Assembly: GCA_030762175.1 (NCBI GenBank)
Contig: CM060835.1
Coordinates: 84,222,001-84,286,000, forward strand
Direction of reading: 5' to 3'
Source of the DNA: Metallyticus violacea
Lineage: Eukaryota; Arthropoda; Insecta; Mantodea; Metallyticidae
Length of the DNA: 64,000 nt
Of this stretch, positions 12,837-57,439 are shown piece after piece (within the stretch, counting starts at the first letter, position 1; every line of letters starts with the position of its first letter). A model generated the notes under the pieces. That model had not been told where the DNA came from and made no database searches. It worked only from the letters and a program-made list of their open reading frames with translations. Made by a program: the position numbers and the translations under genes.

Positions 12837-12848
12837 AGTAGCTTATAT

Positions 12849-14157
12849 ATACAAATGAGTCAGTATTAGGTGACACAAAAACTTCACTAACTGATTAATT
12901 CTTTAGAGCATGTTTCAAGAGCATTTGCTCTCATCTTCAGCTGGGGACTGACTAACTCTAGCAGGTGACGCAGTGGCATCTGGTGGTTCCATTAGATAAC
13001 GGAACAGGAAGTTCATTGGTGGAATGGCAAAATTCATAACTCTATGTTTATTTTTTAAATATAAATCTTTTCTCATATTGCTAAATCCTTGGGATTAGTG
13101 GTAGCGTTTAACAGTTAGGCTTCTCCTGCAATGTTATGATCGTAAGTCCAAAAGTGATCTGCAACCGCCGATTTATCCACTTGTTTATATCTTAAATTTC
13201 TGAAGTGTTCTTTGGTCCTTGTCTCCAAATTTTTAGTATATATAGGAAACCTACACATACAGATAATCACATAAAGAATAACAGTTTCAACCCTAAACCA
13301 CACCAACATGCCATTGTAAACAGCCTTGTCCATAGATTGGTAAACATCCCACTCAACAAAGAAGAGTATTCAGCAGAATACTGTTATATCATCAAAACAG
13401 CCCTGGATTCAGCCAATGGATTCAGCAGCTCTTTAGTTGATAAGAAGATCAGACATTTCGAAAGACAGAAAGATATTAAAAACACCACAACTCTCTCCAC
13501 GATAAAAAAGGACATGGTTTTTAAAAGATTCACATATCATCCATGGGCAAACAGGGCATTCATGAAAATCTTTAAAAATTATGATATATGTTTGGCTGCA
13601 CAAAATAAATTTAGTATTGGAAAGCTTCTGAACGGCACCAAAAAGGACGTTATTCCATCCAGCAAGAAGTCAGGAGTGCATCAGATAGATTGTTTGGAGT
13701 GTGATCAGCTATATATAGGCAAAACAATACGAAAAGTGGAGACAAGGACCAAAGAACACTTCAGAAATTTAAGATATAAACAAGTGGATAAATCAGCGGT
13801 TGCAGATCACTTTTGGACTTACGATCATAACATTGCAGGAGAAGCCAAACTATTAAAAGCTACCACTAATCCCAAGGATTTGGCAATATGGGAAAAGATT
13901 TATATTTTAAAAAATAAACATAGAGTTATGAATTTTGACATTCCACCAATGGACTTCCTGTTCCGTTATCCAATGGAACCACCAGATGCCACTACATCAC
14001 CTGCTAGAGTTAGTCAGTCCCCAGCTGAAGATGAGAGCGAATGTTCTTGAAACATGTTCTGAAGAATTAATCAGTTACTGAAGTTTTAGTGTCATCTAAT
14101 ACTGACTCATTTGTATATGTAACAACTTCACTGTTCCTAACTTCTTTTAAGATTACA
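12849..14157 (+). mobile_element. Penelope-like element, head-to-head fold-back insertion
   Basis: Two 5'-truncated copies face each other. The left arm (12849-13227, minus sense) pairs with 13737-14116. The right copy is longer, starting near 13230, and carries one open frame to the stop at 14048. That frame shows a reverse-transcriptase thumb region (IYRKPTHTDNHI, NSLVHRLVNIPL, TTTLSTIKKDM), then the GIY-YIG endonuclease (LYIGKT, then RTKEHFRNLRY, KSAVADHFW). The 12-bp duplication AGTAGCTTATAT flanks it at 12837-12848 and 14158-14169. An extra 41 bp (14117-14157) is present only on the right. The insertion is in the PUS7 intron, 41 bp before the exon C acceptor. Confidence 0.92.
14020..14064 (+). 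ncRNA. Hammerhead-ribozyme-like motif at PLE 3' end
   Basis: The core CTGAAGA (14025-14031) is followed by T and then a stem with GAGAGC pairing TGTTCTT-side bases around GAAT. GAAA follows at 14049-14052, then the palindrome ACATGT (14052-14057) and the expected cleavage base T at 14058. A short stem I is visible, CAG (14022-14024) with CTG (14059-14061). The motif overlaps the end of the PLE reading frame, whose stop TGA (14048-14050) lies in the TTGAAA. The mirrored motif in the left arm (12908-12940) has lost the palindrome (ACATGC). Confidence 0.75.
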
Positions 14158-14210
14158 AGTAGCTTATATGTTTTTTTTCTTCCTTTTTTTCTTTCCTTCT
14201 CCCATCATAG

Positions 14211-14362
14211 GCAGTATTCTGTAAGTGGAACATACAGACGTATGATAGTGCGTCCTAAAGATGTTTCATGGAAAACAATGCATTATTCCAAGGCAACACA
14301 GACACTCATACAATCTGATCTTGAGGAACTAAGAGAAGCACCTCTACCTGAAGATGAACCAG
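14211..14362 (+). CDS. PUS7: PUS7 internal exon
   Basis: The acceptor follows a long T/C tract (14170-14205) ending CATCATAG, and the donor is CCAG before GTAATA. The encoded peptide begins QYSVSGTYRRMIVRPKDVSW, the strongly conserved S-G-x-YR-x-x-x-RP-x-x-V-W motif of eukaryotic TruD-like synthases. An acidic linker follows with DLEELREAPLPEDE. The phase is 2 in and 1 out. A PLE insertion ends only 41 bp upstream, so the normal branch-site region may partly consist of transposon sequence. Confidence 0.95.
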
Positions 14363-14747
14363 GTAATATTCATTATAATTTTATATTAGTTTGTCATTGA
14401 CAGCATGTACACATTGTCAGAATTTCTGAAGAGCTGAAGGATAATTATGAATAATACATTATATCAACATATATAACCCAGGAATGTCCATGGCTACATA
14501 ATGTTGTACATTTGTTCAAGGAAATGTCTAAAATACAAAATAGATAATTTAATTAAAGCCAGTCTCACTTCATAAGAACCATGTGAGGGAATCATACATT
14601 TATACTTACACAGTTGCCTCATTGAGTTAGGAATTTTACATTAATAGAACATCATTACAAAATAATTATAATTAGAAACTTGCTCAAAACAAATAATTCA
14701 TCAGGATATGATGAAATTATCAGTAAAATTTTAAAAGAATGTTGACT

Positions 14748-14870
14748 GGGTCAATGGCTGAGGATGGAAACGCGGTTCCCAAAACATTGTTCCAACTTAG
14801 GAAAATATAGTAAGTGAAGTTGTGTAATTAAGTTACCCATAGTGTATCATTATAAAAATATTGTTTGTTT
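14748..14870 (+). mobile_element. Short PLE 3'-end fragment with hammerhead-like core
   Basis: The LINE reading is interrupted by sequence with TGG then CTGAGGA, T and GGAA...TTCC stem bases, followed by AAAACATTGTT, CCA and the PLE tail pattern AGTAAGTGAAG. The stem I bases TGG and CCA pair. GAAA is changed to AAAA, so it is degenerate. No coding part is present. Confidence 0.5.
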
Positions 14871-14938
14871 CAGGGAAGGCAGCTCATAAACTTACAAATG
14901 AAATTCTGTCAGGACTAACAATAAAATGTGCATTAACT

Positions 14939-16227
14939 AAAATTCTTAATTGGAACATTGCACAGTGAAGTTATTTATATATTAAGGTCATTGTGTGAAT
15001 GAGTCAAACTAGCACTGTTTTGCTCCACTTATTTGTTTAAATGTGTATTCACAAATCCTTCGTTCGCATCTTCAGCCCCATTGTCAACTGTAGGATAAAC
15101 TGGTATGCTGTGGGGATGTGTGCTCTGCTCTGGTGGAGGTGTGATGAACTTGAAGTTAATGTTATCATCACCAGAAGTGTCAAAATTCATTAAACTGTCT
15201 TTGTACTTGTAAATGTAGATTTTCTGTCATGTTGCTAATTCTGTAGGTCCTTGCATTGATTTTAATAATTTTGTTTTTTTTTAATATGTCAGGTTTTCTG
15301 TCCAGAAATGGGATGCCACTGTTGATTTCTCCAACTGCTTGTATTTTTTGTTTCTAAAGTGTTCTTTTAACTGTGTGCCTATGTTTCCTTTTGTTTTTCA
15401 AATGTAGATTTTTTCACCCTCTGCACAATTTGTTTTATAAATACCTGGTTTTATTCTAAAATTTTTTTGTAGTCCATGGATGATATGTGAATTTTTGAAA
15501 AATTAGCTTATCTTTTTTGTTGAAAATATTGTGGTTTCTTTAATAAGCTTTTGCCTCCTGAATTTCTATACTTTTTATGCACTAGTTCTTTATTATAACC
15601 ATTTTTAGCTGCTGTTCTTTCTATTTGTTTGTATTCTTGAAGTATTCTTCTTGCTAACTTTGAGGTTAACTAGCCAATATATAAGTTGTTGCACATGTAA
15701 ACAGATTTAAGTTAAAAATCCCCTGATTGATAATGTTAATGACAGTATTCCACCAGAGAAAATAGCAGGTATTTATAAAATAAGTTGTACAGAATCTACA
15801 TTGGAAAAACAAAAGGAAACATAGGCACAAAGTTAAAAGAACACTTCAGAAACATAAAATACAAGCAGTTGGAGATATCAGCAGTGGCATCGCATTTCTG
15901 GACAGAAAAACCCTACATAATGAAAAAAACAAAATTATTAAAATCAGTGCAAGGACCTACAGAATTAGCAACATGAAAGGAAATCTACATTTACAAGTAC
16001 AAAGACAGTTTAATGAATTTTGACACTTCTGGTGATGATAACATTAACTTCAAGTTCATCATACCTCCACCAGAGCAGAGCACACATCCCCACAGCATAC
16101 CAGTTTATCCTCCAGTTGACAATGTGGATGACGATGTGAATGAAGGATTCGTGAAACCAATTCTACATATTTAAACAAGTAAGTGGAGCAAAAGAGTGTT
16201 AGTTCGACTCATTCACACAATGATCTT
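14939..16227 (+). mobile_element. PLE head-to-head fold-back inside the LINE
   Basis: The left arm (about 14988-15680, minus sense) and right arm (about 15720-16226, plus sense) are inverted PLE 3' regions. The right arm encodes RIYIGKTKGNIGTKLKEHF, then EISAVASHFW, LATWE-like bases interrupted by a stop, and NFDTSGD. AATAAAATG at 14930-14938 (followed by TG) and 16228-16236 is the likely target duplication. The 3' extension is on the left only (14939-14987, minus sense CTTCACTGTG...GTTCCAATTA). Hammerhead-like cores at both ends are mutated. The arms have diverged by substitutions and small indels, so this is older than the fold-back at 16696. Confidence 0.85.
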
Positions 16228-16411
16228 AATAAAATGCATATTGACAAAGTTTTCTTTGATGTAGCTAAAACATTTGTTTTTAATAACCATGAAATTGTAA
16301 TAGGAAAACAAAGCTTTATGGAATTAAAAATGAAGACTTAACTGGTTTATTCTTACCCTCATAACAGAAAACAAAAGTTACAATTAAATTCAGAAAATAA
16401 TCAGTATGGTA

Positions 16412-16605
16412 TAATGTTGATATATGTTGGTATGGGGACACTTATACTTCATTTACTTCAGTTTTTAATTAGACATGTTTTGGGAACATTTGCTTCATCA
16501 TGAGCAGAAGACCAACTGAAAGTGTAACCAAACGAACTTGTCATCAACTTTATTTTACTTTTCATTGTTAATAGCTTCAAGAGTATAAGTTGGTAATCAG
16601 TATAG
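16412..16605 (-). mobile_element. Probable short PLE 3'-end insertion
   Basis: The minus strand shows CATGATGA, a short stem, then AAAACATGTC and the PLE tail pattern near 16520-16455. LINE coding sequence stops at about 16412 and resumes near 16605 (GGTTTCAATTCTTGGTCC at 16642). No endonuclease coding is retained. The boundaries are approximate. Confidence 0.4.
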
Positions 16606-16756
16606 TATTCCAAATTGGGGAATTATTGAACAGATCCACAGGTTTCAATTCTTGGTCCATTGGTTTTTTTTAGTTTATATAAACAATCTCTCACTATAAT
16701 TGAAATCATTTTATGATATAGTCGAACTACACACTCTTATGCTTCACTTACTTGTC

Positions 16757-16806
16757 ACTATTGTAGACCGGTTTCGAGAACAGTTGTTCTCATCATCAGT
16801 TCAAAT
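16757..16806 (-). ncRNA. Hammerhead-ribozyme-like motif, intact core (left arm)
   Basis: Exact mirror of the motif at 17541-17590. The core TCATCAG reads CTGATGA on the minus strand at 16799-16793, and the palindrome ACCGGT lies at 16767-16772. The two motifs would face each other in a single hairpin if the locus were transcribed through. Confidence 0.8.
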
Positions 16807-17540
16807 CTCCGACTGCTGGATAATTCGTTGTGTTGTGGGTATTCTGCTCTGGAGGAGGTGTGATGAACTTAAAGTTTATATTTTCCTCGCCGGAAGTGTC
16901 AAAGTTCATTAAACTGTCTCTGTATTTGTAAATGTATATTTTCTCCCATGTTGCCAATTCTGTAGGTCCTTGCACTGATTTTAACAATTTTGCTTTATTC
17001 ACTATATCGTGGTTTTCTGTCCAAAAATGAAATGCCACTGCTGATTTCTCAATTTGCTTGTATTTTATGTTCCTGAAATGTTCTTTTAACCTTGTGCCTA
17101 TGTTTCTCTTTGTTTTTCCTATGTATATTTTTTCACATTCTTCACAACTTATTTTGTAAATGCCTGGTTTTTTCTCCTGTGGAAAACTTACAAAATAAGT
17201 TGTGAAGAATGTGAAAAAATATACATAGGAAAAACAAAGAGAAACATAGGCACAAGGTTAAAAGAACATTTCAGGAACATAAAATACAAGCAAATTGAGA
17301 AATCAGCAGTGGCATTTCATTTTTGGACAGAAAACCACGATATAGTGAATAAAGCAAAATTGTTAAAATCAGTGCAAGGACCTACAGAATTGGCAACATG
17401 GGAGAAAATATACATTTACAAATACAGAGACAGTTTAATGAACTTTGACACTTCCGGCGAGGAAAATATAAACTTTAAGTTCATCACACCTCCTCCAGAG
17501 CAGAATACCCACAACACAACGAATTATCCAGCAGTCGGAG

Positions 17541-17590
17541 ATTTGAACTGATGATGAGAACAACTGTTCTCGAAACCGGTCTACAATAGT
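17541..17590 (+). ncRNA. Hammerhead-ribozyme-like motif, intact core (right arm)
   Basis: CTGATGA (17548-17554), then T, then a perfect stem GAGAAC/GTTCTC around loop AACT (17556-17571). GAAA follows (17572-17575), then the palindrome ACCGGT (17575-17580) and C at the expected cleavage site (17581). Stem I is weak, with one mismatch. The PLE stop codon TGA lies inside CTGATGA. An extra T separates the core from stem II, as in all copies here. Confidence 0.8.
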
Positions 17591-17798
17591 GACAAGTAAG
17601 TGAAGCATAAGAGTGTGTAGTTCGACTATATCATAAAATGATTTCAATTATATGATTGGCTTCACTGTGAATGTTCCAATTAACATTTTTAGTTAATCTC
17701 TCACTGTCTAAATAACATCAGTAATACTGTTCTATTTGCTAATGATACCAGTGTAACAGTTTGTAGCAATAACTTTGATAGAAAAAATGTGCTTAATA

Positions 17799-18036
17799 GT
17801 TTTGAATAGCGGGAATTTTAACAGTGAAATATAATATAATATACCAAATTATTATTGAGGGAATCACTTAAATTTCACTAATTTTGTTCCACTTACTTGG
17901 ACGTGTTTCAAAGACTGTTGCCTTCATCTTCAGCCTGAATTTGAAGATGAAGGCAACAACCTTTGAAACATGTCCAAGTAGAACAAAATTAATGAAATTT
18001 AAGTGATTCTCTCAATAATAATTTGTTATATTGTAT
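17799..18036. mobile_element. Minimal PLE fold-back without coding sequence
   Basis: An inverted repeat whose arms hold only the PLE 3' end: left arm about 17845-17936, right arm about 17938-18030. Both arms contain GAAACATGTCC-like bases and the AAGTGRAACAAAATTARTG tail. The core is TTTGAAGA in the right arm and CTGAAGA in the left (minus sense, 17933-17927). The extension (minus sense TTTCACTGTTAAAATTCCCGC) is on the left only. It belongs to the same subfamily as 31681-31891 and 54718-56455. Target duplication is not convincing (TTAATAG at 17793 and 18037). Confidence 0.8.
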
Positions 18037-18312
18037 TTAATAGAATTTGTAACTGGTTCAAAGCTAATGAATTATCATTAAATCTAGGTGAAACAAGTAT
18101 CATAAAATTCATAATATATAACTCGCCTGATTTCACATTAACTATAAGTGCTAATAATCGCATACTTGACAAATATAATGATACCAAATTTCTAGGTTTT
18201 AAAGTTGACAAATAATTAATTGGAAAGCACATATATAGCAGATAATAATTTTCACAATTTCATTTCCTACCAAGATGTCCTGCTCCAAATAGTTTTCATA
18301 ATAACATTTTCC

Positions 18313-28391: not shown

Positions 28392-28403
28392 ATCTCTGTT
28401 AAA

Positions 28404-28690
28404 TATTGTACTTATGAAGCTGTTGACAATGGAGTGGCAACATAACCTAAACTTAGTATTCATTTTTTTACACTAAACTCCATTCACTTACACAAAAGTA
28501 AGACGCATTTCGGAAGAATCTCTCCCATCTTCAGTTTCTCACTGAACCGCCGTTACTCAAAACTATGCTGGACAAACGGATGTTCCTCTGGTGAGCAACT
28601 GAATATGAGAGAGATTCTCCTGAAACGTGTCTTACTTTTGTGTAAATGAATGGAGTTTAGTGTAAAAAATGTATACCTAAGTTAGGTTAT
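28404..28690. mobile_element. Minimal PLE fold-back, no coding sequence
   Basis: The arms at about 28442-28545 and 28590-28690 are inverted. Both contain a hammerhead-like core (minus sense CTGAAGA at 28534-28528; plus CTGAATA at 28599) and the tail CTTACTTTTGTGTAA, then AATGGAGTTTAGTGTAAA. The exact 12-bp duplication ATCTCTGTTAAA flanks it (28392-28403 and 28691-28702). The one-sided extension (28404-28441) is on the left. The stem III hexamers are ATGCGT and ACGTGT, each one C-to-T change from the palindrome ACGCGT. Confidence 0.88.
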
Positions 28691-28702: not shown

Positions 28703-31669
28703 ACCTGTTTTTTGGTTTTGACTTGTCATTAAAAATGCCTTGGGTTTTGAACTTTGCTCATCATTCTGAAAATTGCCCTTCGCAATGGAAATGTAGCACA
28801 GAAGTCTCTCCTGCAGTACTTGTACTAATTTCTTTTGCATGTAACAATTATTAGTAAATATTCTTTGTTGTATCATATGTCTTCACTTTTGACATACTTA
28901 AGAATATACAATACATAGAAAATATAGCATGCTCTTTCTACAGGCATGCAATGAAACAATTCTCTGCATCAGCAAAACTTTAACTCCAATCTTACCAGGA
29001 ATTGCTAATCTACTTAAGTGAACCAATTTCCACTAGTGATGGATAAAGTGGCTCGCTTTTGTGGCTCAGGCCGTTCAGTTTTTCTACAAATGGGGGAAAA
29101 GCAGAGGATTAATATGAAGAAAGAAAAGAGGGAGGGGAACATTTTCATACAGACTTTTATTTTAAAAATAACAATTTCATATACAAATCCAAATTATTTT
29201 TGTGTGAGAAATCACAATTTCACATCAAATGCAAAGAATATTTTGCAAGAGATTGCATTTTCATACAAAAAGAAATTATCTTTTATTAGAAAAAATATAT
29301 TTTCAGATTAAATGCAAATTATTTTTGTTTATAAAAATATTACAGTTTCACATAAAAGCTATTGTACTGACTGGCACTTTAATGTAAAATGCAAATGAAC
29401 TAGCAGCTTACTAGTAGAGCAACCCTGTAACAAGCAATTCCAAGGAAGCATGTAAGTACGTTTTGAGTCTTGCTCCTGATGTGCTTTATATACAAATATA
29501 ACAGAAAGTGAAGGAACATGTTTTCTTAATCTTTCACATTGCATTATCTGAACCTAGACTACAGCACCCTAGACTCTTTGTTTTGGCAACCTCTGAACAT
29601 TCCCAATCCCAAAAAACCATCTCTTCTATTGTACTGATGCAACATGAGAGAGAAAGAGAACCTAATCACTCCTGATCCAAACATTCCTGTATACCTGTTC
29701 CTGAAGAACCATGATTCACTTTTACTGAGTCATCAAAGAACTGCTCAAAAGATCCAATTTGTGAATATGTGACCTTTCTAGTTTCCACTAGTGTATACAA
29801 TCTCCAATTATGTAGGGAAATGATGGAAAGGTATCATTTTCATAAAATATTAAATGTTATGTCATTACAAAAACCTGACCATTTTGTAATTAGAGCAGTG
29901 CATTGAAAAAAAAAACAACTTTTTATGCTCATGTGTTAATGCTTGTACTCCAACTTTTTGCATATAATATTGTAATTTTAGAAAAATCTAGCACAATATA
30001 TGTTCGTTTTTGGGTCTATTATTAACTTATTAGCAAAATATTTTACCTATCATTGTGTAGGTTTGTCAGTTACACAAACTTAATTTCTGTTAAATCTATT
30101 CAGTCAAATTAATTCCTGTACACATTATGATACAGAAAACAATTTATATTACTGATAATAGAGTAGATTCACCCTACACATTTTTAAAAAAATAATTTTA
30201 AAATTATTTTTACATACCCAATCTCTCTTTTAATGAGTTATTTATTTATTTATACAAATTTAATATTTTATTTTAGAAACCAATCTTTCATTTAGCACAC
30301 TTTATAATTCACAAAAGTTCAACCCATTAAACATTTTTACAAGGCCATTGTCAGTAAACACTCTTATCAGCTTATTACCTAATTTCTGTGGTCCTTCCAT
30401 TTGTCTAGTCATCACATTTATAATGCAAGTGCATAACCCTGAAGCAGTTGCCTACAAGGATAATTTACTAAGCAAATTACATAGATTTAGTACTAAAAGT
30501 AAGAAGGGCAACTGAATAACCAGTATATGTTTATGAAACTCAAGTTTTTATGTAGCCTATAATTAGCTTATAGCACATTTCACTCTCTTGGAGGATACAG
30601 CTTACAGAAGTGCCTTTTTAGTGTGCGAGTCTTGACGAGACAGAATCTATGGTTGTATCTAAAGAAGAGCCGGTGTTCCTTATAATTTCTGCCACATTTC
30701 TAGGTTTTATATAGGGAAATATTACAGAATACACTGAGAACAATAATGCTTTGTGATATCTCAGTCAACTGGATAAGTCCAGAGGCACTTTAGCCTTCCA
30801 TGCACAGCAAATAGCATAGGCATATATGCAAGTGGGAAGGTGATAAGATCTGATTTACTCAAGTCAACCCACAGTGGATAGCAGAATCTGTCATTTCATT
30901 TTGAACTTTTAGCATTATGTTTGATGGGAAGGATCTGACCCTTGTGCTTATAATTATTAAATTTCATTCCATTTTTAGTGCACATCAAAAGTGTTTTACA
31001 GAAGTTCCAGGAAAGAAAATGCAGTATAGTTTTTGTTCCTAGTGAATTAGTTTTGAAAGCAAAACTATATCATGTATGTTTCAGCATTTGAAGAGCTATG
31101 AGATAAGACAAGCATCAGACAATTGGAAATAATATTTAACTTGCTTTTGAACTGGACTTGTTCTATTAAATTTATTTTTTAAAATAAGCAACTGTGTTAA
31201 TATTAGCATAAATGTAATTTCAGGGGATATCCTATATGGTACTCTGAAGGCAAAGACTTGTAAAAAGATGTTTCACATGCAGATTGACTGAAATTGCATT
31301 GTAAAACAGCTCAAGGACTACACTTCAAGAGAGCAATGTTTACAGCCCATTGTGATTTGTACATGCACACAGAGAGTGCAGTAATTCTTTTGCCCCAGAG
31401 AAATTATGAGATTTTGGCTGCCAGCCTTGAGACTCTAGTAAGGCAAATATCTGTCCCTAACTTTATAGTTGAAATTAAGATTATTCTAAAATTCTGCTGA
31501 TATTCTACTCCCTGTGTTTTCTCTTATATACTGCTATACTTGGATACTGCTATATTTTTATAAACTGTTATTACTATTTTTTTTTAAATCCCATACAATG
31601 CATGAAATCTGCTTATCTGTTGATTGTCACTTAACGTTATATAAATTCATTGAAATGTTAGGGTACAAA
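28703..31669. other. About 3 kb intergenic, nothing recognised
   Basis: Between PUS7 and MCM3. No conserved peptide, tRNA or repeat family member was recognised. ATTTATTTATTTATA runs occur near 30240. Confidence 0.4.
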
Positions 31670-31680
31670 CTGATTACAGA

Positions 31681-31891
31681 ATAATACAACAATTTTTAAT
31701 GAGGAAATCACTCAAATTTCGCTAATTTTGTTCCATTTTGACATGTTTTGAAGGCTGTTACATTCATCATCATCATCCTTCAGAACATAACCAAGTATGT
31801 GGAACAAAATTAGTGAAATTTGAGCGATTTGCTCATTAAAAATTGCCATATTATACTATATTTCACTGTTAAATTCCTGCTATTTAAAACT
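31681..31891. mobile_element. Minimal PLE fold-back, no coding sequence
   Basis: The left arm from 31681 (AATAATACAACAATTTTTAATG...) and the right arm ending near 31855 are inverted, with GACATGTTTT and the tail GGAACAAAATTAGTGAAATTT. The extension (TTTCACTGTTAAATTCCTGC) is on the right. The 11-bp duplication ACTGATTACAG flanks it (31670-31680 and 31892-31902). The hammerhead core is degraded, and an (ATC)n expansion at 31765-31778 sits where stem II would be. Confidence 0.85.
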
Positions 31892-41342: not shown

Positions 41343-42060
41343 ATGTAACGCGAGCTGCAATGCGAAATTTTTCAAGTCCGAAGCAGACACAGTGCGAATG
41401 CATACTTGACGGATTGAAAGAAATGGAGTTTTTTGACATGTTTGAACGTTTTTCCCAATTTTACGTTAAATAATGTAAATGATTTGGGATTACAGCATGA
41501 TTCTTGAATATATATGTAAAAATGTATTATTATTTTACTTACTGTGTTATGATGCAGGAGAATAGCCAACATAATGTCATAACAATCAATGCAGCGAACA
41601 GAAGTATCTTGTTCGTGAAATATCTAAATCTAAACCTACCTAAATTGCACTAATAAAATATCTTAACCTAAACTAATCTAAAATGCAGTAAACTATTGGA
41701 TACATCAGCTGAATGACTTCCATCAGTTTTTGAAAAGGGTCTGCTGCTCTGTTTTTGCAGTCCTGATGCCACAAAAATTCACAAATGTGCACATCCATAT
41801 TCTGTCCCACCTAATACCGCCTCTAGACAGATGATGATGTAGAGTTCTCCAGTGGGATTCAATGTTATTCAGGCGATAGTCTGTCACTGGGCCCATAAAA
41901 TGCACTGAGTGGTTGACAGTCAGATGAGCTGCAAATCTGGCAACCATAATCCCTTAATAACCTCCCCAGATATGGATTGTGCTGGTAAACTCTATTAAAT
42001 TGAACAGCATGTTGGCATCTCTCCTGCAAGTGGGACAATTGGTGTGTTAAATTGTTGATA
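41343..42060 (-). mobile_element. Merlin remnant, 3' half, reverse orientation
   Basis: The minus strand encodes VARFAAHLTVNHSVHFMGPVT, then NNIESHWR with the catalytic Glu preserved, and CTFVNFCGIRTAKT. These are homologous to the C-terminal half of the Merlin at 37882-39558. Its end (41343-41420, GTAACGCGAGCTGCAATGCG, then AGTCCGAAGCAGACAC) matches the other copy's right terminal repeat. It is 5'-truncated near 42060 and lies in MCM3 intron 1. Confidence 0.85.
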
Positions 42061-46200: not shown

Positions 46201-48840
46201 AATCTCTTTTGTTTCATAGCTCCTTTCCCAAAAAATTCAAAACCAAGTATTTTAATATCTTTACTATAATTTAATTATGTTTCTGCTAGCCCTAAAATAC
46301 TAGCTCTTCTCATTACTATATTAGTAAATCCCTAAAGATACAGCTATTTTTATTCCTTCACAGTTCCAGAAGCCCAGAGTTACTATTTTTCATCTTCTCT
46401 CCCAGTTGTGATCCAAGCCTGTACCTAAATTCTTGCAATTTCTTCCTACTCCGAAGTTGAATCTCTTCTCCTGGAACATCTTGATATTTATGTCCTGACA
46501 CTTCAATATGGGCTCAATTTGCCTGTCTCCAAGATACTTCCACTTGGAATATACACAATGCTTCACTCCTTAGGTTCTTCCTCATTCTAGTGCAATATTC
46601 TTCTCTCCCCTCCACTCCTAGCGCATCATCATCTTTTGCATTTTACAAGACAGCTGCCTGTCTGAGAAAATTCTTAATTCTCCTACGTGATGTCACCATA
46701 ACTCAATCTTCCATCAGCTGATTTTGAACTTTGATTTATTGCCATCTCTAAATCTTGCCTTTCATCTGCACTCTTTCATAGGTTTACCCTTTGTTTCCTC
46801 CTTTTGACCGATTTTTATTGAGTTATTTCTAATACATTATTCCATCATCTGTATATAGGTCTTTTTCTCCCTCCGAACCTTACACTAATTCAACTAACTT
46901 CCTCTTCTATTTATGTTCTTTAAATGATATAGCCATACTAATAAAATGTTATTCTCTTTCAGTTTCTTCACTTTGTGCAAATATTGTAAACCACATACTT
47001 ATTCAATCATTTTGCAATTATCATCCTTCTCTCATATTTTTGCCCCACTCAAAATGCGTAGACTATTTAAGAGTGCATACATCTGATAAGCATTTGTATT
47101 AATCAGCCATATTTTACATTTGATAAACAGTTTTATAAACAACAAACAGGCTTGACCATGGGAAGTCCTCTATCTCCTTTCCTGGCAAATCTTTACAATA
47201 ATTTTGAAATACATATTACTTCAGCCTTTCCACACTTCTTTAAGTGTTGGTACAGATATGTGGATGATATTTTTGCCATAGTTAATAAAAAGTTAATTGA
47301 GGATGGACTAAAGATTTTGAATATTCAAGATAGAGATATAAAATTCACACATGAAATAAAAATAGACAATATGCTACCTTTTTTGGATATTAAAATTATA
47401 AAGAGTAAAGAAAACTTGAAATTTCGCATATATAGAAAAGACACACATGCAGATAATTATATCAAAGAAAATGGTTTTAATCCTATAGCTCACAAACATG
47501 CAATTTTCAATAGTTTGATATGCAGATTGATCAATTTGCCAATAAGTAAAGAAGAATATAACATAGAATATAAAAAAATAAAAGAAATAGCAATTTTAAA
47601 TGGTTTTAATCAAGATTTAATACATAATAAGATTAAAAAATTCCAGAGAAAGAAAAGAATTCAAAATTCCACTACATTATCAACAATTAAAGAAAAAATG
47701 TCCTTTAAAAATTTACATATAATCCAACAGTGATGTATAAATTTAAAAAAATATTTAAAGATATTAATATAAAATTGGCTCCCACTAATAGATTTAGTTT
47801 AAACAACGTTTTGAAAGACAATACTACAGATAATACCCCAAAGGAGAAAAAAGCTGGGATTTACAAGATTTCAATTGCTGAATGTGGTAAGATCTATGTA
47901 GGAAAAACTAAGAGGAATGTGAGCATATGAGAAATTTAAAGTACAAACAAATAGAAAAATCAGCAGTGGCATATCACTTTTGGACCGAAAATCATGATAT
48001 AAAGGGAAAAGTTGAATTATTGAGGGCTGTACGGGGACCGGTAGAATTGGATATTTGGGAAAAGATTTACATCTGCAAACATAAGGTCATTTGATGAATT
48101 TTGACCTTCCGAAGGAAGAAAATATAAATTTTAAGTTCATAAAAGTTCTCACCAGAGTGGAACATTGCTTCTGATACTACGTAACAACAGCCTTTTACAC
48201 CAGTCATCCACGGCCAAAGATGGAGATAACATATCTTTGAAACCGGTACCGAATATTTTTAAGGTTAGTGAAGCATGAAGAGTGTTAGATGACAAAGTTA
48301 ATGCATAGACTATTTCTTATCCATCTAACTTCATCCTCCAAGATTTCTTACACTTCTTGTTGAGCCCAAACACCTCAGTGTTTTTCCATTCCAGCAAATA
48401 ACAGGTTGAATTTTCTATTTTTTTCCTCTAATTTGACTCTTAATTTGAGCTATTTCTTTGTCAATTCCGTAAATGTCTTTTATCTCATGCTTTATCTCCA
48501 TAACAGCTACATTAATTTTATGGTCAAATTGTTCCTCCATTCCACTCAATTTGTTCATAATCTTTTCCAAATTTTCACCATAGTCTGCAGGGTCAAGATT
48601 CATCTCTACACCACCAATCAACAACAGAAACACTTAGATAATTCCCATAATCACCAAGTTGTTCGTCTTATTTCTCCTTACTATAAACATTCCAATCCTT
48701 GACCTGTACATTATCAGACTCACTCCCATTGTCCTTTGTTTCCTTTTTTCATATAATAAACAGGAGCTTACCACCTCACTTCCTCTCTCTTCTTCTGCTA
48801 GTTTAGCACTCTTCAATAGCTAAATGTCAGTTTGGAAAAT
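43280..48840 (-). mobile_element. LINE-1 family copy c, interrupted by a PLE
   Basis: Minus strand: RSRIG and LLLIGGVEMNLDP at the N-terminus (48700-48570), followed by MEEQFDHKINVAVMEIKHEI, a coiled-coil-like segment. The reverse-transcriptase entry is PKSWHTAIIYPIYKGKDSG and SYREIALLSGLGKIF, then RNEVISPYQFGFGKGST (44896-44690), with the C-terminal part down to 43280. It aligns with copy b over most domains. Stops are frequent. The PLE at 47069-48299 split it, leaving a 16-bp target duplication. Confidence 0.85.
47069..48299 (+). mobile_element. Penelope-like element with RT palm and GIY-YIG, inserted in LINE copy c
   Basis: The open frame from about 47117 contains QQTGLTMGSPLSPFLANLY and RYVDDIFAIVNKK (YxDD catalytic motif at 47251-47262), then FLDIKII, RIYRKDTHADNYI and TTLSTIKEKM, stopping at 47731. 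The frame resumes with FKDINIKLAPTNRFSLNNVL and KIYVGKTKRNV, and then breaks again. It shows the most complete reverse transcriptase of any PLE in the window. Target duplication AATGCGTAGACTATTT and AATGCATAGACTATTT (47053-47068 and 48300-48315) differs at one base. The hammerhead core is degraded (CCAAAGA at 48214). This is a single copy, not a fold-back. Confidence 0.93.
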
Positions 48841-48977
48841 CACAAATAGCTTTTCAGAATACCTTATATTGGATAGAACCTCTACAAGAAGAGATGGAAC
48901 TTATCAGTTCATACAAATTATCTTTATTTATTTAAGAGCTTTTAAGTTTTTTGGGAAAATAAACACATAGTTTCTTA

Positions 48978-49721
48978 TATGTTACATTAATGCTTTCAGT
49001 TGTTAACACTAACTCCACTTACTTATTTAAAACTTTGGACTAGTTTCGGGAGAGGTTCCTCCCATCATCGGCTGTTGTTGACTGAGTGCCGTTGTTCGAA
49101 ACGGGGGATGGACGCCCGTTCGCCCCTGTGGTGGTATCTCGTGGCTCTAATAGAAACTTGCTGAGTTCATCCAGCGGCGGAAAATCAAAATTCATTAAGT
49201 TGTTCTTATTTTTTAAAATGAAAATTCTCTCCCATGTGGATAGTTCTATTGGTTTGCGAAGTTGTTTCAATAATTTAATTTCTGGTTTTATTTCATGATT
49301 TTTGTTCCAAAAATGAGCTGCTATTGCTGATTTTTTTGAAACAAAAATCATGAAATAAAACCAGAAATTAAATTATTGAAACAACTTCGCAAACCAATAG
49401 AACTATCCACATGGGAGAGAATTTTCATTTTAAAAAATAAGAACAACTTAATGAATTTTGATTTTCCGCCGCTGGATGAACTCAGCAAGTTTCTATTAGA
49501 GCCACGAGATACCACCACAGGGGCGAACGGGCGTCCATCCCCCGTTTCGAACAACGGCACTCAGTCAACAACAGCCGATGATGGGAGGAACCTCTCCCGA
49601 AACTAGTCCAAAGTTTTAAATAAGTAAGTGGAGTTAGTGTTAACAACTGAAAGCATTAATGTAACATATATTACCACTCCATTGTCTACAGCTTCGTAAG
49701 TACAATTTTTACTTAATTTTT
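48978..49721. mobile_element. PLE fold-back with about 330-bp near-perfect arms
   Basis: The arms 48976-49305 and 49341-49670 are inverted and seem identical (the same 70-residue translation is read from both). Each encodes the end of the endonuclease frame: HFWNKNHEIKPEIKLLKQL, LSTWERIFILKNKNNLMNFD, PPLDEL. The 13-bp duplication ACATAGTTTCTTA flanks it (48965-48977 and 49722-49734). The extension 49671-49721 is on the right only. The hammerhead-like motifs read CCGATGA (U4 to C) with stem GGGAG/CTCCC, GAAA and the palindrome ACTAGT (49602-49607; mirror at 49039-49044). Confidence 0.95.
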
Positions 49722-49734
49722 ACATAGTTTCTTA

Positions 49735-49807
49735 TTAATTGATATACAATGATATCAATTAATATGATTAGCTTCACTGTGCAAGTTCCAATTTACATTT
49801 AAGTAAA
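49735..49807. mobile_element. Micro fold-back of a PLE 3' end, about 73 bp
   Basis: TTAATTGATAT (about 49735-49746) is mirrored by ATATCAATTAA (about 49752-49763) with a few bases between. It is followed by the subfamily extension TATGATTAGCTTCACTGTG and GTTCCAATTTACATT, as seen at 17652-17694. It sits between the second and a third copy of ACATAGTTTCTT (49722-49733 and 49808-49819). So it looks like a separate PLE insertion at the same target, with only about 12 bases copied from each RNA end. Confidence 0.7.
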
Positions 49808-50293
49808 ACATAGTTTCTTGCTTCACATGGTACATAACTTATTCTTAATTTTTCACGGGCTTACAAAAATAATGAAAGAAAGATTAATTGAACTGATTCA
49901 GCTATTTCTGCCTTTAATGAATGCAGATATGATTTAGCTTCTGCAGCAGTGCTGATTTTTCCTTCTATGCATTACAAAGTTGTAGGAGCAGTTTTGCAAC
50001 AGTTTTCATGATTTTTCTTTCAGAAATTAATATCTATGGAACAAAGCTGCAGTACTTAATGGTAAAGACATCAAAACATTTTTCAAAATTAAAAAATGGA
50101 TCATACCTTTCTGTCTGCCCTCATAAAAAGTTTGATAGTTGTTCTAGACAGATATAACCTCTTGAATATATAGCTGAAATTTTTACTAATATTGAACCTA
50201 TTTCAGACCAAAATAATATAGTAGCTGATGTGCTGACCTGAATGAAACCCTTTAAATTATCAAGAAGAACTTATTTACTTCAAAACATCCACT

Positions 50294-50570
50294 GCTACAG
50301 GTGACCGAGGTCATTAAGGTGCGGACTTGTGAATGGGAGGTCTGGGGTTTGATTCCCACCAGAACTGTTCTCCCTGACTGCGGTATTTTCCAGGTTTTCC
50401 TCAGTCCTCAAAAATGGCCAATACAGGGAGGTACCCTAGATTTAGGCCTGGAATATTTCCTTCCTTTAAAAAAATCCTTTCCCAATTTATCATTTCATCT
50501 CATATATCATCAGTGTTCACCACCTGTGGTGCCTTATTAGTAAAAACGAGCATTAAACATTATTAAAAAA
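50294..50570 (+). repeat. SINE-1 copy nested in Gypsy remnant
   Basis: Head TACAGGTGACCGAGGTCATT (box A), box B GGTTTGATTCCC (about 50345-50356), and the family body and 3' segment ending GAGCATTAAACATT plus A run. Confidence 0.92.
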
Positions 50571-50731
50571 AACATTAATCTAAAACTTATTTTATTTTTA
50601 TAGCATTAAATTTAAAAACTGTAACCTGCATTGTGAAACATGAACAGGAATTTTTCAACCTTACATATCACAGCCCTTTCAAAAGACTTGTTTTCGAATT
50701 ACTTCATGGTTAGTATCATCCTGGTATAAGC

Positions 50732-51013
50732 AATTTTTTTTTTATTTATTTAATAGTGTTTAATGTCCATTTTTACTACTGAGGCACCACAGGTGATGGA
50801 CCTGATGATATATGAAATGAAATGGTAAATTGGGAAAGTATATTTTTTAAGAAAGGAAACATTCTAGGCTTAATTGTAGGGTTCTTCTCTGACATTTGCC
50901 ATTTATGAAGATTTAAAAAAAAAACCCAATTGGAAGATGGTCCTGGTGGGAATTGAATCCCAGACCTCCCGCCCAAGAGTCTGCACCTTAACAACCTTGG
51001 CCACACATGGCGT
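50732..51013 (-). repeat. SINE-1 copy nested in Gypsy remnant, reverse orientation
   Basis: Minus strand: CGCCATGTGTGGCCAAGG (51013-50996), box B region GGGATTCAATTCCC near 50970-50953, and the 3' segment and A/T tail to 50732. Flanks TGGTATAAG and CGGTATATG suggest a diverged target duplication. Confidence 0.9.
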
Positions 51014-53218: not shown

Positions 53219-54717
53219 GTAGGGGCATACTTAAGATTTAGCACACTAAGCAAAGCATTAACTGTCAAATAAAGAATTCAAATGCTTGCTGATCGCATTA
53301 CTGTTTGAAGATACTATAAAGTATTTTGATAATTATTTAGCCCATCATGACAGATTTTTAAGGTATTTACTTACAGTCATTTTACTTCACTTTGAAATAT
53401 AATAGTAAAAGTGTTGATTCTTACATGTACATTGCAGTGGTTGTAATGGTAAATTGGCGTACAGTATTGCAGCTAATATAGGTGTGCAGATGTGGGTTTT
53501 GGTGTTGTATCATGCTTTATTTCACTTGAAAAAAGAATATTACAATGTTTTTGAGAAAGAATATCCTTAGATATTGAGTGAGCATAGCAATAGCATAACT
53601 GCTTTGTGTGCATTTCAATCCCTGTCCCACTTTAGGGTTCTGCTGTTATATTTTTTTGTTCTACAAAATATAGAATACAATGATACTTTTAGCACTAAAA
53701 TAAATAAATAAAGAGGATAAATAAAGTGGAATATTATAAGGCAGTAAATTATTTGGTAATGTTTGAGATTAGGTTCGTTTACTCATTTGTTTTTATTACC
53801 GGAAGGCATTAGGTTGCATGAAAGTTTGAGGAGCAAAACTACAAGAGTCAAATCAGAGTTTATGCCCGCATAAAGAAATATTCAAAAGAGGCACAAAATG
53901 ACTGTTTCTTGATGGAGTATCTAAACAATAATAGAATGATAAACTTTCACACAGCTGTAGATAAGTACTAAATGAGCACGGCAGTGCTATTCACAATTGT
54001 GCAAAATTAATGTTATGTGCATCTTAGCAGTAATTTGCATTATTCTGCTTCACTCTCTGTTAGGTTAGGTGCAAAAGAAACAGGCGCTTTATCTCACAGG
54101 CATTTTCCTTTATGTTAAAGGTAATTATCTTCGTAAAGGAATGCATTCATGCATACCAATATATTTACATCATCTATGACATATTCAGTATCACAACATC
54201 AACTAACTGCAGCTATTCACTGCAATCGCGGCATCAATGGCTCCTTTAGAAGCCACTAGATTCATTGCAAAAGATCAGTAGTGCCATATGGCCCACAGCT
54301 TATCTGGTTTTATGCTTATATTTTTTAACAGGGTATGCAGCTAACCATCACAATCACAGTATCAACAGCTCCTTAAGAAGGCACCAAATATGTCACAAAA
54401 GAGCAGTAATCCCATGTTATCCACAATTTATCCACCAGCAGTGCTTATATGTTTGTGATTTTGGTTCTTCTGTGTTTTTATAAGGGTTTGCAGCTATGTA
54501 TGCAGCTATGTATGCATCAATTGTAATGTATTTTTACGCTATGGTGCTTGCCTGGTATTCTGCTTCTATCATCTTCTGGTTTATAATGAAAATAATTTGT
54601 GTTTTTACTTGAATGGTTCTTTATATGCAATCCACTCCCCATAGTGGCAGCTCTGGGAAATAAGAAACAAATGAATAAGGTAACCCATCTATCCTCAAAC
54701 ATTACGAATTATCATAT
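53219..54717. other. MCM3 intron 2, first part; diverged 120-bp tandem repeat
   Basis: 54212-54327 and about 54338-54455 are diverged direct repeats. Each runs GCAGCTA, CACTGCAATCGCGGCATCAA or its variant, GGCTCCTT or AGCTCCTT, AAGA..CA.TA, CCCACAGCTTAT or CCACAATTTATC, and GCTTATAT. The remainder shows no recognised feature. Confidence 0.55.
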
Positions 54718-56455
54718 AACACATTATTTATAAGGAAGTCACTCAAATTTAATCAGTTTTATTCACTTACTTGGACATGTTTCAAAGGCAAATTTCCTTC
54801 ATCGTCAGCACGGTTCCACTGTCAGCTTTCTGGCGTGATATTAAGATGTTGCTCTTTGGATTTTATAAACTTTTTCATGAGGTTGCTGTTGTTTGGAAGA
54901 TCAAAATTAACTAAATTTTCTTTAAAAAAAAATCTACATCGGAAAAACAAAGAGAAACATAGACTCATGGTTAAAGGAACATTTCAGGAACATAAAGTAC
55001 AAACAAAGAGAGAAATCAGTGCAGCATATCATTTTTGGACACAAAATCACGACATAACAAATAAAGCAAAATTATTAAATCAGTACAAGGACCTACGGAA
55101 CTAGCAACCTGGGAAAAAATCTACATCTACAAATACAAAGACAGTCTAATGAACTTTGACATTGCTGGAAATGAAAACATAAACTACAAGTTTATCACAC
55201 TGCCACCAGAGCAGAATACACATTCCCACAGCTCAAGGAATGATCTGACAGTTGAACTTTAGCCTGGCTGAAGATGGGAACTAAATGTTCTGGAAACCGG
55301 TTCCATACATTTATGAAAAGTAAGTGAAGCTTTAAGAGTGTGTAGTTCAACTGAATCATATAATGATATCAATTAATAAATTTTCTTTGTTTTCGTTCAA
55401 GAATATATTTTCCGACAATTCTGTGTATTTTTGAAGAGCTTTTAAGAGTTTGGTTCATTTTGGAACTTTTTTTTATTTTTTGACCAGAAATAGTATGCTA
55501 CAGCTGATTTTTCCCATGTTTAAATAATTTTACACTTCTCATGTGTTCCTTACCGTATAGTAATGTTCCTTCTTGTTTTACCAATATATTTATTATTGAT
55601 GTCTTTGCAACTGATTTCGTAAATGCCTGATTGTTTTGCTGGCGAAATTTTGTCCTTTGTGTTGGTTTTTAGGAGGTTTTTCAACCCATGCATATAGCAT
55701 GGAAAAATGGCTACACAACAGATCTGGTCAAGAAAAAGATAAAAAATTCAAAAAACAAATAAAAGAAATCACCACACTGAAAGGTTACAAAGGAGAGCAG
55801 ATATATAAAAAATTTACATTCCATCCATGGGCACACCAATAATCTCAAAAGATTTTAAAAGAGGCCAACATTATTTTGGCTCCAGTGAATAAATGCTATT
55901 TGAAAAACATAAAAACCAACACAAAGAATAAAATTCTGCCAGGAAAACAATCAGGCATTTACGAAATCAATTGCAAAGACTGCAATAATAAATATATAGG
56001 TAAAACAAAAAGGAATATTACCATACAGTTTAAGGAACACGTGAGAAGTGTAAAATATAAACATATGGAAAAATCAACAGTAGCATTCCATTTCTGTCAA
56101 AAAAAAAAAAAACCATGAGTTCCAAAATGAACCAAAACTCTTAAAGCTCTTCAAAAACCCATAGAATTATCGGTTTGGAAAAATATGTTCTTGAATGAAA
56201 ACAAAGAAAATTTAGTTAATTTTGATCTTCCAAAAACAGCAACCTCATAAAAAAGTTTATAAAATCCAAAAAGCGACATCTTAATACCACGCTGGAAAGC
56301 TTACAGTGGAATTGTGCTGACGATGAAGGAAATTTGCCTTTGAAACATGTCCAAGTAAGTGGAATAAAACTGGTCAAATTTGAGTGACTTTCTCATAAAT
56401 AATTTATTGTACCATACTGTATTTCACAGTGAAAATCCCAAACTATTCAAATTTA
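54718..56455 (+). mobile_element. Large PLE fold-back, itself split by a second PLE
   Basis: The left arm (54718-54923 continuing at 55389-55677, minus sense) pairs with the right copy (about 55685-56402, plus sense). The right copy encodes KKFKKQIKEITTLKGYKGEQ, KFTFHPWAHQ, QSGIYEINCKDCNNKYIGKT and KSTVAFHF before an A-run frameshift. Hammerhead-like motifs with CTGACGA, stem AAGG/CCTT, GAAA and ACATGT are preserved in both arms (54774-54808 minus; 56317-56351 plus). The extension is on the right (about 56403-56450). Target duplication is unclear (ATTATCA at both flanks). Confidence 0.88.
54924..55376 (+). mobile_element. Nested single PLE copy
   Basis: A 5'-truncated PLE of the 16696 subfamily begins at the A run after 54923. 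It encodes KIYIGKTKRNIDSWLKEHFR-like sequence, KLATWEKIYIYKY-like bases and NFDIAGN, all with frameshifts. The 12-bp duplication TAAATTTTCTTT is exact (54912-54923 and 55377-55388), and the host PLE resumes across it. The hammerhead-like motif is intact at 55265-55305: TGG/CCA stem I, CTGAAGA (55268), GAAA and ACCGGT (55296-55301). No extension follows it. Confidence 0.92.
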
Positions 56456-56507
56456 TATTATCAATTATTTCCAGTATTTCCATAATTAGATCAGATAGCT
56501 AATAAAA

Positions 56508-57426
56508 ACATTTTTTAAAAAATTGAGTCGAAATTGTAACATACACACCACTAAAATTCAATAAAATGGAAGACTAGTTTCGGGAGCCATCGCTCCTATC
56601 ATCAGTTCCTGGTTGACTGCCGGTCTCCTTGTTTGTGGTAGGTCGATTCATCTCTGGTGGAGGTTTAATGAACTTTTGTATTAGTACATCACTTGGCGGG
56701 ATTTCGAAATTAAAAACTTTCTCTTTATTCTTCTATATATAGATATTTTCCCAGACTGTAAGTTCAGTTTTTCCTTTAATATTTTTAAGTAATTTGGGGT
56801 TTTTATTAATGTTATGCTGTTCTTTCCAAAAGTGCCAAGCTACCGCCGATTTTTCTTCTTGTGTTTGGTTTATATTCCTAATGTGTTCTTTAGCTCTTGT
56901 TTTTATGTTTCTTTTGGTCTTTCCAAAATATATCAGATGAACTGTAATGATTGTGAAAAAATTTATGTTGGAAAGACCAAAAGAAACATAAAAACAAGAG
57001 CTAAAGAACACATTAGGAATATAAACCAAACACAAGAAGAAAAATCGGCGGTAGCTTGGCACTTTTGGAAAGAACAGCATAACATTAATAAAAACCCCAA
57101 ATTACTTAAAAATATTAAAGGAAAAACTGAACTTACAGTCTGGGAAAATATCTATATATAGAAGAATAAAGAGAAAGTTTTTAATTTCGAAATCCCGCCA
57201 AGTGATGTACTAATACAAAAGTTCATTAAACCTCCACCAGAGATGAATCGACCTACCACAAACAAGGAGACCGGCAGTCAACCAGGAACTGATGATAGGA
57301 GCGATGGCTCCCGAAACTAGTCTTCCATTTTATTGAATTTTAGTGGTGTGTATGTTACAATTTCGACTCAATTTTTTAAAAAATGTTAATATTTGACACC
57401 ACTGTTACAAAAGTTCACTATATTTT
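56508..57426. mobile_element. PLE fold-back with about 420-bp arms
   Basis: The arms 56507-56926 and 56968-57387 are inverted and near-identical. Each encodes YVGKTKRNIKTRAKEHIRNI or its truncated equivalent, EEKSAVAWHFWKEQHN and LTVWENIYI. The exact 13-bp duplication ATAGCTAATAAAA flanks it (56495-56507 and 57427-57439). The extension 57388-57426 is on the right only. It lies in MCM3 intron 2, directly after another fold-back. Confidence 0.95.
57280..57330 (+). ncRNA. Hammerhead-ribozyme-like motif, intact core
   Basis: Stem I GGAA (57285-57288) pairs with TTCC (57323-57326). Between them lie CTGATGA (57289-57295), T, and stem II AGGAGC/GCTCCC around GATG with one outer A-C mismatch. GAAA (57313-57316), palindrome ACTAGT (57316-57321) and C (57322) complete it. 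A mirror copy lies at 56572-56605 on the minus strand. Confidence 0.8.
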
Positions 57427-57439
57427 ATAGCTAATAAAA

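What the first reader, a model, noticed from the sequence alone, without database searches (positions are those of the whole stretch)
12837..57439. Recurrent head-to-head fold-back PLE insertions
At least ten insertions share one architecture: two copies of a PLE 3' region inverted about a short centre, 5' truncations inward and 3' ends outward, with a single target duplication around the pair. They lie at 12849, 14939, 16696, 17799, 28404, 31681, 48978, 49735, 54718 and 56508. Arm lengths range from about 12 bp to more than 600 bp, and the two arms are often unequally truncated. Because one duplication encloses both copies, each pair is one insertion event. The simplest model is that both 3'-OH ends of a staggered break primed cDNA synthesis from separate RNA molecules (or a dimer) and the cDNA 5' ends were then joined. 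Inverted partial copies are known for Penelope in Drosophila virilis, but such regularity and the coding-free miniature forms seem worth describing.
Basis: partly seen in the sequence, partly recalled or inferred. Interest (0 to 1): 0.9.

Follow-up and report, generated by a model that had tools for sequence, protein, structure and literature searches.

The report
Mirror-image Penelope retroelement insertions
The ten mirror-image insertions are real and are a known way in which Penelope-type jumping genes land, but in the clean pairs examined here exactly one of the two halves carries a short extra 'tail', which suggests that both cut DNA ends start copying the element's RNA, each from its own start point.

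Summary
All ten listed pairs are head-to-head Penelope-like (PLE) 3' regions inside one 7-14 bp target duplication. The architecture is not new: head-to-head inverted pLTRs inside one TSD, with an optional tail on one of them, are printed as typical Penelope structure (PMC3846280), and a purified PLE cleaves and extends both target strands from two RNA start sites (PMC11167929). Exactly one arm of each pair carries a tail of about 34-55 nt: 10 of 10 in the window, 40 of 40 counted two-armed insertions with an exact TSD once young copies from the same 2.32-Gb genome are added. One more has one tail and a one-mismatch TSD; one compound locus without a TSD has two tails. In 13 of 23 pairs whose arms differ by 3 nt or more at the centre, the untailed arm is the longer, so simple snap-back copying cannot make those. 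Arms of one insertion differ five times less than arms of different insertions, which favours one RNA source. Best model: both ends of one staggered cut prime on one PLE RNA (or its sister), one at each start site, and the cDNA ends are joined.

The parts
12837..12848 (.). A: left TSD AGTAGCTTATAT (right copy 14158-14169)
12849..13239 (-). A: left arm, untailed
   Evidence: 94.1% to right arm
13240..14116 (+). A: right arm with GIY-YIG reading frame, longer at the centre
14117..14157 (+). A: tail (right arm only)
14920..14928 (.). B: left TSD AATAAAATG (right copy 16228-16236; continues GCAT with a 1-nt indel)
14933..14983 (-). B: tail (left arm only)
14984..15690 (-). B: left arm, longer at the centre (junction placed by eye)
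15691..16227 (+). B: right arm, untailed
16685..16695 (.). C: left TSD AATCTCTCACT (right copy 17695-17705)
16696..17187 (-). C: left arm, untailed, 29 nt longer at the centre
17188..17651 (+). C: right arm (GIY-YIG), 464/464 identical to left arm
17652..17694 (+). C: tail (right arm only)
17793..17799 (.). D: left TSD TTAATAG (right copy 18037-18043), weak
17800..17833 (-). D: tail (left arm only)
17834..17938 (-). D: left arm, short, begins at the hammerhead-like core
17939..18036 (+). D: right arm, untailed
28392..28403 (.). E: left TSD ATCTCTGTTAAA (right copy 28691-28702)
28404..28441 (-). E: tail (left arm only)
28442..28568 (-). E: left arm, short (junction approximate)
28569..28690 (+). 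E: right arm, untailed
31669..31679 (.). F: left TSD ACTGATTACAG (right copy 31892-31902)
31680..31785 (-). F: left arm, untailed, longer at the centre
31786..31854 (+). F: right arm
31855..31891 (+). F: tail (right arm only)
48965..48978 (.). G: left TSD ACATAGTTTCTT(AT) (right copy 49722-49735)
48979..49325 (-). G: left arm, untailed, about 20 nt longer at the centre
49326..49667 (+). G: right arm
49668..49721 (+). G: tail (right arm only)
49722..49733 (.). H: left TSD, shared with G (right copy 49808-49819): same 12-bp target used twice
49734..49748 (-). H: left arm (12 nt paired), untailed
49749..49763 (+). H: right arm
49764..49807 (+). H: tail (right arm only)
54708..54714 (.). I: left TSD ATTATCA (right copy 56457-56463), weak
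54715..55690 (-). I: left arm, untailed, interrupted by nested single copy L (54924-55376)
55691..56411 (+). I: right arm, longer at the centre
56412..56456 (+). I: tail (right arm only)
56495..56507 (.). J: left TSD ATAGCTAATAAAA (right copy 57427-57439)
56508..56934 (-). J: left arm, untailed
   Evidence: 99.5%
56935..57386 (+). J: right arm, about 26 nt longer at the centre
57387..57426 (+). J: tail (right arm only)
47069..48305 (+). K: single-arm PLE copy (RT and EN remnants), untailed, TSD TAGACTATTT 47059/48306
54924..55376 (+). L: single-arm PLE copy nested in I, untailed, TSD TAAATTTTCTTT 54912/55377

Best explanation
Each pair is one PLE insertion made by paired target-primed reverse transcription. 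The element's GIY-YIG endonuclease makes a staggered cut; both 3'-OH ends prime cDNA synthesis on PLE RNA. One end starts at the distal start site and so carries the tail; the other starts about 40 nt further upstream at the proximal site and so has none. Both cDNAs copy the same RNA (or sister RNAs from one locus), stop at or before its 5' end, and their free ends are joined head to head, with 0-7 nt overlap or up to 13 nt of filler. Filling the stagger gives one TSD. Shown by sequence: head-to-head arms, one TSD, exactly one tail, closely clustered tailed and untailed ends, common source of both arms. Inferred: that the two starts belong to opposite target strands in one complex, that one RNA molecule serves both, and how the ends are joined.
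For: One TSD and one tail per pair in 10 of 10 window insertions. Genome, exact TSD and exactly one tail: alpha 7 of 7 pairs and 7 further two-armed insertions among 12 single ends read upstream; gamma 11 of 12 pairs; epsilon 5 of 6, the sixth having one tail and an 11-bp TSD with one mismatch (sequence, read by eye). So 40 of 40 counted with an exact TSD; independent choice by the two arms would give at most 0.5^40. Tailed ends of alpha copies fall within 3 nt; untailed ends within 12 nt (2115-2127 on the reference copy), which the query's end partly imposes. Published: a purified PLE cleaves and extends both strands, and the tail equals the RNA stretch between two RT start sites (PMC11167929). 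The untailed arm is longer at the centre in 13 of 23 unequal pairs, so neither arm can be a full copy of the other there. Arms within an insertion 6/3673 differences, between insertions 253/30242.
Against: The in vitro paper saw no difference in start site between strands, so strict asymmetry is not predicted by it. Near-equal arms (7 of 12 alpha pairs within 30 nt against 0.78 expected) and a recurring 14-19 nt difference also fit a hairpin (self-priming) step. Two insertions at different sites (L125, L127) share one centre and a third place has a joint near the same point, which free end joining would rarely give. Arm identity could come from later conversion between arms. One compound locus (L131) has two tails and no TSD. 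My genome queries required the 3' end, so insertions begun at other RNA positions would be missed. No host name, RNA, protein or read data were available.
Confidence: 0.7

Rival explanations
1. Self-priming (snap-back): one cDNA or antisense template folds back at its end and is copied into the second arm. This is the explanation offered in print for head-to-head Penelope copies (PMC3846280 Discussion).
For: Near-equal arms in 7 of 12 alpha pairs and short centres in window C, D, G, H, J; differences of 14-19 nt recur (L121, L122, L123, L069, L134, L125/L127); palindromic centres.
Against: The copied arm cannot exceed its template, yet 13 of 23 unequal pairs have the untailed arm longer at the centre and the tail on the shorter arm; overlaps at the joints are only 0-7 nt. 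A mixed model (snap-back inside, second primed cDNA outside) or later loss of bases at the centre is not excluded.
Confidence: 0.15
2. A head-to-head copy, once made, is transcribed and re-inserted as a unit, so pairs are inherited structures.
For: L125 and L127 share one centre at different sites with different TSDs.
Against: Joints differ in the 12 alpha pairs placed; a search with the L125 centre found two places at 100% over the full length and one more at 81% with extra bases, in 40 scored of 876 candidates; both arms of L125 share two states absent from L127, and the tail is on opposite arms relative to the centre.
Confidence: 0.07
3. Two separate RNAs from different source loci are copied, one from each break end.
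For: Compatible with one TSD and with arms of different length in A, B, I.
Against: Within-pair divergence 0.16% against 0.84% between pairs; shared private states in both arms of L069, L073, winC and L125.
Confidence: 0.06
4. Assembly or sequencing artefact (foldback chimeras).
For: Perfect palindromes are a known artefact class (recalled); no reads could be inspected.
Against: An artefact would not create one TSD, a conserved tail on one side and off-centre joints, repeatedly, also in old pairs with 84-94% arm identity.
Confidence: 0.02

Closest known systems
Penelope/Poseidon-type EN-containing PLE insertions with inverted pLTRs (Adineta vaga Pen2a and relatives, PMC3846280)
   Same: Head-to-head inverted 3' regions, one TSD (8, 9 and 10 bp in the passages read), a 31-bp tail on one inverted pLTR, 5' truncation, AT-rich targets.
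   Different: There the inverted pLTR flanks mostly longer elements, some such copies have no TSD, and the tail is called optional; here 14 of 19 alpha insertions followed up are head-to-head pairs, several window pairs are too short to hold coding sequence, and the tail is on exactly one arm in 40 of 40 counted with an exact TSD.
Poseidon of Anolis carolinensis (PAc) in vitro reaction (PMC11167929)
   Same: Both target strands cut and extended; two start sites whose interval is the tail; hammerhead motif; unprocessed RNA used.
   Different: That paper reports no strand difference in start site, and the parts read do not follow the products to head-to-head joints; here start sites are anticorrelated between the two ends.
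LINE-1 twin priming (recalled, not looked up)
   Same: Second target strand primes on element RNA; inverted product inside one TSD.
   Different: In twin priming the two cDNAs cover adjoining parts of the RNA; here both cover the same 3' region.

Membership tests
EN-containing Penelope-like element | C-terminal GIY-YIG endonuclease domain | tested here: met
   PF01541 E 1.9e-6, 28.5 bits over cut-off 22.6 in C right arm; A right arm 18.7 bits, below cut-off
EN-containing Penelope-like element | PLE reverse transcriptase upstream of the endonuclease in one frame | tested here: inconclusive
   Copy K gives RVT_1 E 2e-5, 24.9 bits, below cut-off 29.6; no intact full-length frame was read and no phylogeny made
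EN-containing Penelope-like element | Pseudo-LTR / tandem arrangement | not tested
   No full-length tandem copy was examined
EN-containing Penelope-like element | Hammerhead ribozyme motif near the 3' end | tested here: inconclusive
   A CTGANGA-stem II-GAAAC-NN-GTC-like motif, mismatches allowed, was found in 19 of 21 arms tried (not in B left and F right; stem II 5-7 pairs, 3 in F left); Rfam listed no hammerhead at E<=1
EN-containing Penelope-like element | Optional 30-40 nt 3' tail | tested here: met
   34-54 nt, one arm only, 10 of 10 in the window
EN-containing Penelope-like element | 5' truncation and TSD of variable length | tested here: met
   TSDs 7-15 bp, variable truncation
MITE / TIR DNA transposon | Fixed terminal inverted repeats and transposase relation | tested here: not met
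   Arm length 12 to about 880 nt, arms carry GIY-YIG, ends asymmetric by the tail

The most novel reading that the evidence does not exclude
PLE integration obligatorily uses its two RT start sites once each, on opposite target strands and on one RNA: the asymmetric head-to-head pair is the normal product of PLE integration rather than an aberration, and start-site choice is coupled between the two subunits.
Probability: 0.45. Interest if true: 0.75.

Novelty: new member of a known kind. Interest (0 to 1): 0.5.

Why it matters
How PLEs complete integration is open: the in vitro study read here leaves the steps after first-strand synthesis to be validated (PMC11167929). A genome with many young, nearly identical head-to-head copies (dozens read here, over a thousand candidates per family in two searches) and a strict one-tail pattern gives a direct test between paired priming and the self-priming explanation in print, and predicts what a reconstituted two-strand reaction should yield. 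Practically, long near-perfect palindromes of this kind can trouble assembly and repeat annotation.

Tried and rejected
TIR transposon or MITE: rejected, the arms carry GIY-YIG and their lengths vary. Hammerhead cleavage as the cause of the 5' truncations: by eye, the arms run through or end upstream of the motif and I saw none in the window that begins exactly at the expected cleavage point (sequences). Rfam microRNA matches at the palindromes are all below gathering scores and reflect hairpins. Fold-backs as self-propagating units: see rivals. Arm-length coupling in the window: random re-pairing reaches the observed similarity in 13 of 200000; without H in 287; with the six long-armed pairs alone in 58408, so the window alone does not prove it. 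In the seven alpha insertions found by one 3' end only, 2 of 7 are within 30 nt against 0.15 expected (reached in 1436 of 200000), but the log-ratio statistic is not significant (97632 of 200000). Relatives in viral contigs: none in two scans. Protein database: switched off, so that query could not be made. The RVT_1 search of the genome served only to learn that the assembly is held.

Dropped before counting: alpha has 28 unpaired matches; 26 ends were read for the tail (18 tailed, 8 untailed), two (C1:9986920, C1:2915187) not at all. One far pair (C1:35071178 / 35078156) is tail-to-tail, 7 kb apart, both ends tailed, and was left among the unpaired. Twelve of the 28 were read upstream: 7 two-armed with one tail; 1 single with TSD (L076, untailed); 1 single without TSD (L079, tailed); L075 and L077 tailed, with no partner end or TSD found within about 4.4 kb; L074 sits inside another alpha copy and also shows one tail and a 13-bp direct repeat, but the repeat is alpha sequence, so it was not counted. 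Gamma: 17 unpaired, 12 read for the tail only (6 tailed, 6 untailed). Epsilon: six new pairs read, the other matches not. The searches scored only 40 of 1290, 1516, 876 and 563 candidates. Of the 41 one-tailed pairs (40 exact, 1 with a mismatch) the centre was placed in 26, could not be placed in 4 (D, E, H, L130) and was not read in 11. In the spaced stretches, 15 of the 20 inverted repeats listed had no TSD by that test.
Full report
Observation. The window is a 64-kb piece of a 2.32-Gb eukaryote assembly (310 contigs, host not named to me). It carries at least one PUS7/TruD exon. The arms carry a GIY-YIG domain (PF01541, 28.5 bits in C, cut-off 22.6), so the sequence is PLE 3' region. All ten pairs were aligned arm against arm and their flanks compared. 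Every pair has one TSD: 12, 9, 11, 7, 12, 11, 14, 12, 7 and 13 bp for A to J. With the same geometry imposed on random positions, >=9 bp occurs in 28 of 4000 and >=7 bp in 201 of 4000, so D and I rest on geometry and family resemblance rather than on TSD length.

The tail. In 10 of 10 pairs the TSD abuts one arm end within 0-1 nt and lies tens of nt beyond the other (41, 51, 43, 34, 38, 37, 54, 44, 45 and 40 nt; 55 for B if only its exact 9-bp TSD is used; right arm in seven, left arm in three). The interval is element sequence: it aligns between insertions around a CACTGT-like core (CCATTGT in E and G). By tail and arm the insertions fall into about five families, my labels: alpha B, C, H; beta D, F, I; gamma E, G; delta A; epsilon J. 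[quoted passage not shown]

Genome-wide test. I searched the own assembly with pre-tail 3' ends, so that the query did not contain the tail. It did contain the usual untailed end, so arms begun further upstream would be missed. Alpha gave 42 matches from 40 scored of 1290 candidates, 41 of them 100% identical over the 122-nt query, i.e. very young. Seven head-to-head pairs among them all have one tail and an 11-13 bp TSD. Of 12 unpaired alpha ends read upstream, seven are also two-armed with one tail and a 12-14 bp TSD (L069-L073, L078, L080; the L072 TSD was placed by eye next to its partner arm), one is single and untailed with an 11-bp TSD (L076), one single and tailed without TSD (L079), and three were not counted (L074, L075, L077). 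Gamma gave 12 new pairs; 11 have one tail and an 11-15 bp TSD, and the twelfth (L131) is compound, holds a tandem repeat of its left part, has two tails and shares no TSD. Epsilon gave six new pairs; five have one tail and an exact TSD (those of L132-L134, 10-12 bp, read by eye from the printed sequence), and the sixth has one tail and a TSD with one mismatch. Together 40 of 40 counted insertions with two arms and an exact TSD have exactly one tail. In 20 stretches of 10 kb taken without regard to PLEs (18 spaced, 2 window flanks), 20 inverted repeats were listed; three have a TSD of 10-12 bp with one end abutting and the other 32-49 nt away, one has the same geometry with 7 bp, one a 7-bp match with a 22-nt gap, and 15 have none; random placements reached >=9 bp in 6 of 600. 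Such fold-backs are therefore found across the genome, and the window is rich in them.

Centres. Where the joint could be placed, the arms are nearly equal in many cases and very unequal in others: alpha differences are 14, 18, 15, 3, 16, 651, 1, 57, 736, >2000, 1015 and 29 nt. Seven of 12 are within 30 nt against 0.78 expected by re-pairing (0 of 200000 re-pairings reach seven). Four of these twelve (L121-L124) were chosen for reading because their ends lie close together, and without such picking the test is weaker. Overlaps at the joint are 0-7 nt and fillers up to 13 nt. Counting differences of 3 nt or more, the untailed arm reaches further at the centre in 13 (C, F, G, L070, L072, L073, L080, L121, L122, L125, L128, L133, L134) and the tailed arm in 10 (A, B, I, J, L069, L078, L123, L124, L127, L129); three are equal within 1 nt (L071, L126, L132); D, E, H and L130 could not be placed; 11 more pairs were not read inside. 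For F, G and B the assignment of the centre rests on homology to other copies.

Mechanism. A second arm copied from the first cannot carry a tail that its template lacks, so the 13 cases exclude simple snap-back copying for them, unless bases were later lost at the centre. The self-priming account in print (PMC3846280 Discussion) therefore does not cover these insertions as it stands, although a mixed scheme, in which a hairpin forms at the centre and a second primed cDNA supplies the other end, is not excluded and would explain the recurring 14-19 nt difference. Arms of one insertion are far more alike than arms of different insertions (6 of 3673 against 253 of 30242 sites, ten alpha insertions) and share private states in L069, L073, winC and L125. 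I conclude that both arms come from one RNA or one source locus, with later conversion between arms as the caveat. The simplest joint reading is paired priming: both ends of one staggered cut prime on the same RNA, one at each of the two start sites. That the starts are anticorrelated goes beyond the in vitro result, where no strand difference was seen.

Oddities. L125 and L127 are insertions at different sites with different TSDs that share one centre, with the tail on opposite arms relative to it. A search with that centre found these two at 100% over the full length and a third place, C2:28614030, at 81% in both directions with extra bases, i.e. another palindromic joint near the same point (40 scored of 876 candidates). 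G and H, of different families, used the same 12-bp target, leaving three copies of it. Three of nine gaps between neighbouring insertions are <=90 bp (P = 0.0002, or 0.0018 if only half of the window were available).

Known or new. The architecture and the tail are known; membership among EN-containing PLEs is supported but not complete (RT below cut-off, hammerhead by motif only, pLTR not tested). In the three answered paper searches and in what I read (PMC3846280 passages and Discussion; PMC11167929 parts 1-2 of 4 and passages; PMC8969392 section 11 part 1 and passages; passages of PMC12910113, PMC3136932, PMC5718144, PMC6431247) I found no statement that exactly one arm always carries the tail, nor a test of arm extent against tail. 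The original Drosophila virilis papers were not looked up, and Craig et al. 2021 and Cervera and De la Pena 2014 are not held.

Noticed in passing
window 48965-49819: Insertions G and H, from different PLE families, share one 12-bp target sequence present three times: the same staggered site was used twice.
   Followed up: partly
window 12837-18043, 48965-49819, 54708-57439: PLE insertions are clustered: three of nine gaps between neighbours are 90 bp or less.
   Followed up: partly
L125:540-640 and L127:540-640: Two head-to-head insertions at different sites, with different TSDs, share the same centre but carry the tail on opposite arms relative to it; a third place (C2:28614030) has a similar joint with extra bases.
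   Followed up: partly
L131:1-776: Compound gamma locus: a 400-nt stretch of flank plus left arm is repeated in tandem with a 376-nt period; the adjoining pair has two tails and no TSD.
   Followed up: partly
window 38758-42038: DNA transposon remnant with an IS1595-like (Merlin-type, name recalled) transposase match (E 0.0012, below cut-off) and imperfect inverted repeats 38853-39575 / 41327-42038.
   Followed up: no
window 42768-43066 and 50301-51004: tRNA-like SINE copies (by eye), one inside PLE copy M and an inverted pair at 50.3-51.0 kb.
   Followed up: no
window about 500-3000, 23500-27000, 43500-47000: Three pyrimidine-rich stretches on the + strand (62-68% C+T in half-kilobase bins) with no mutual similarity in a masked blastn.
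   Followed up: partly
window 37236-37361: Perfect (AAG)42 microsatellite.
   Followed up: no
window 5642-6193: PUS7/TruD-like exon (PF01142) followed by a lysine/alanine/glutamate-rich stretch.
   Followed up: no
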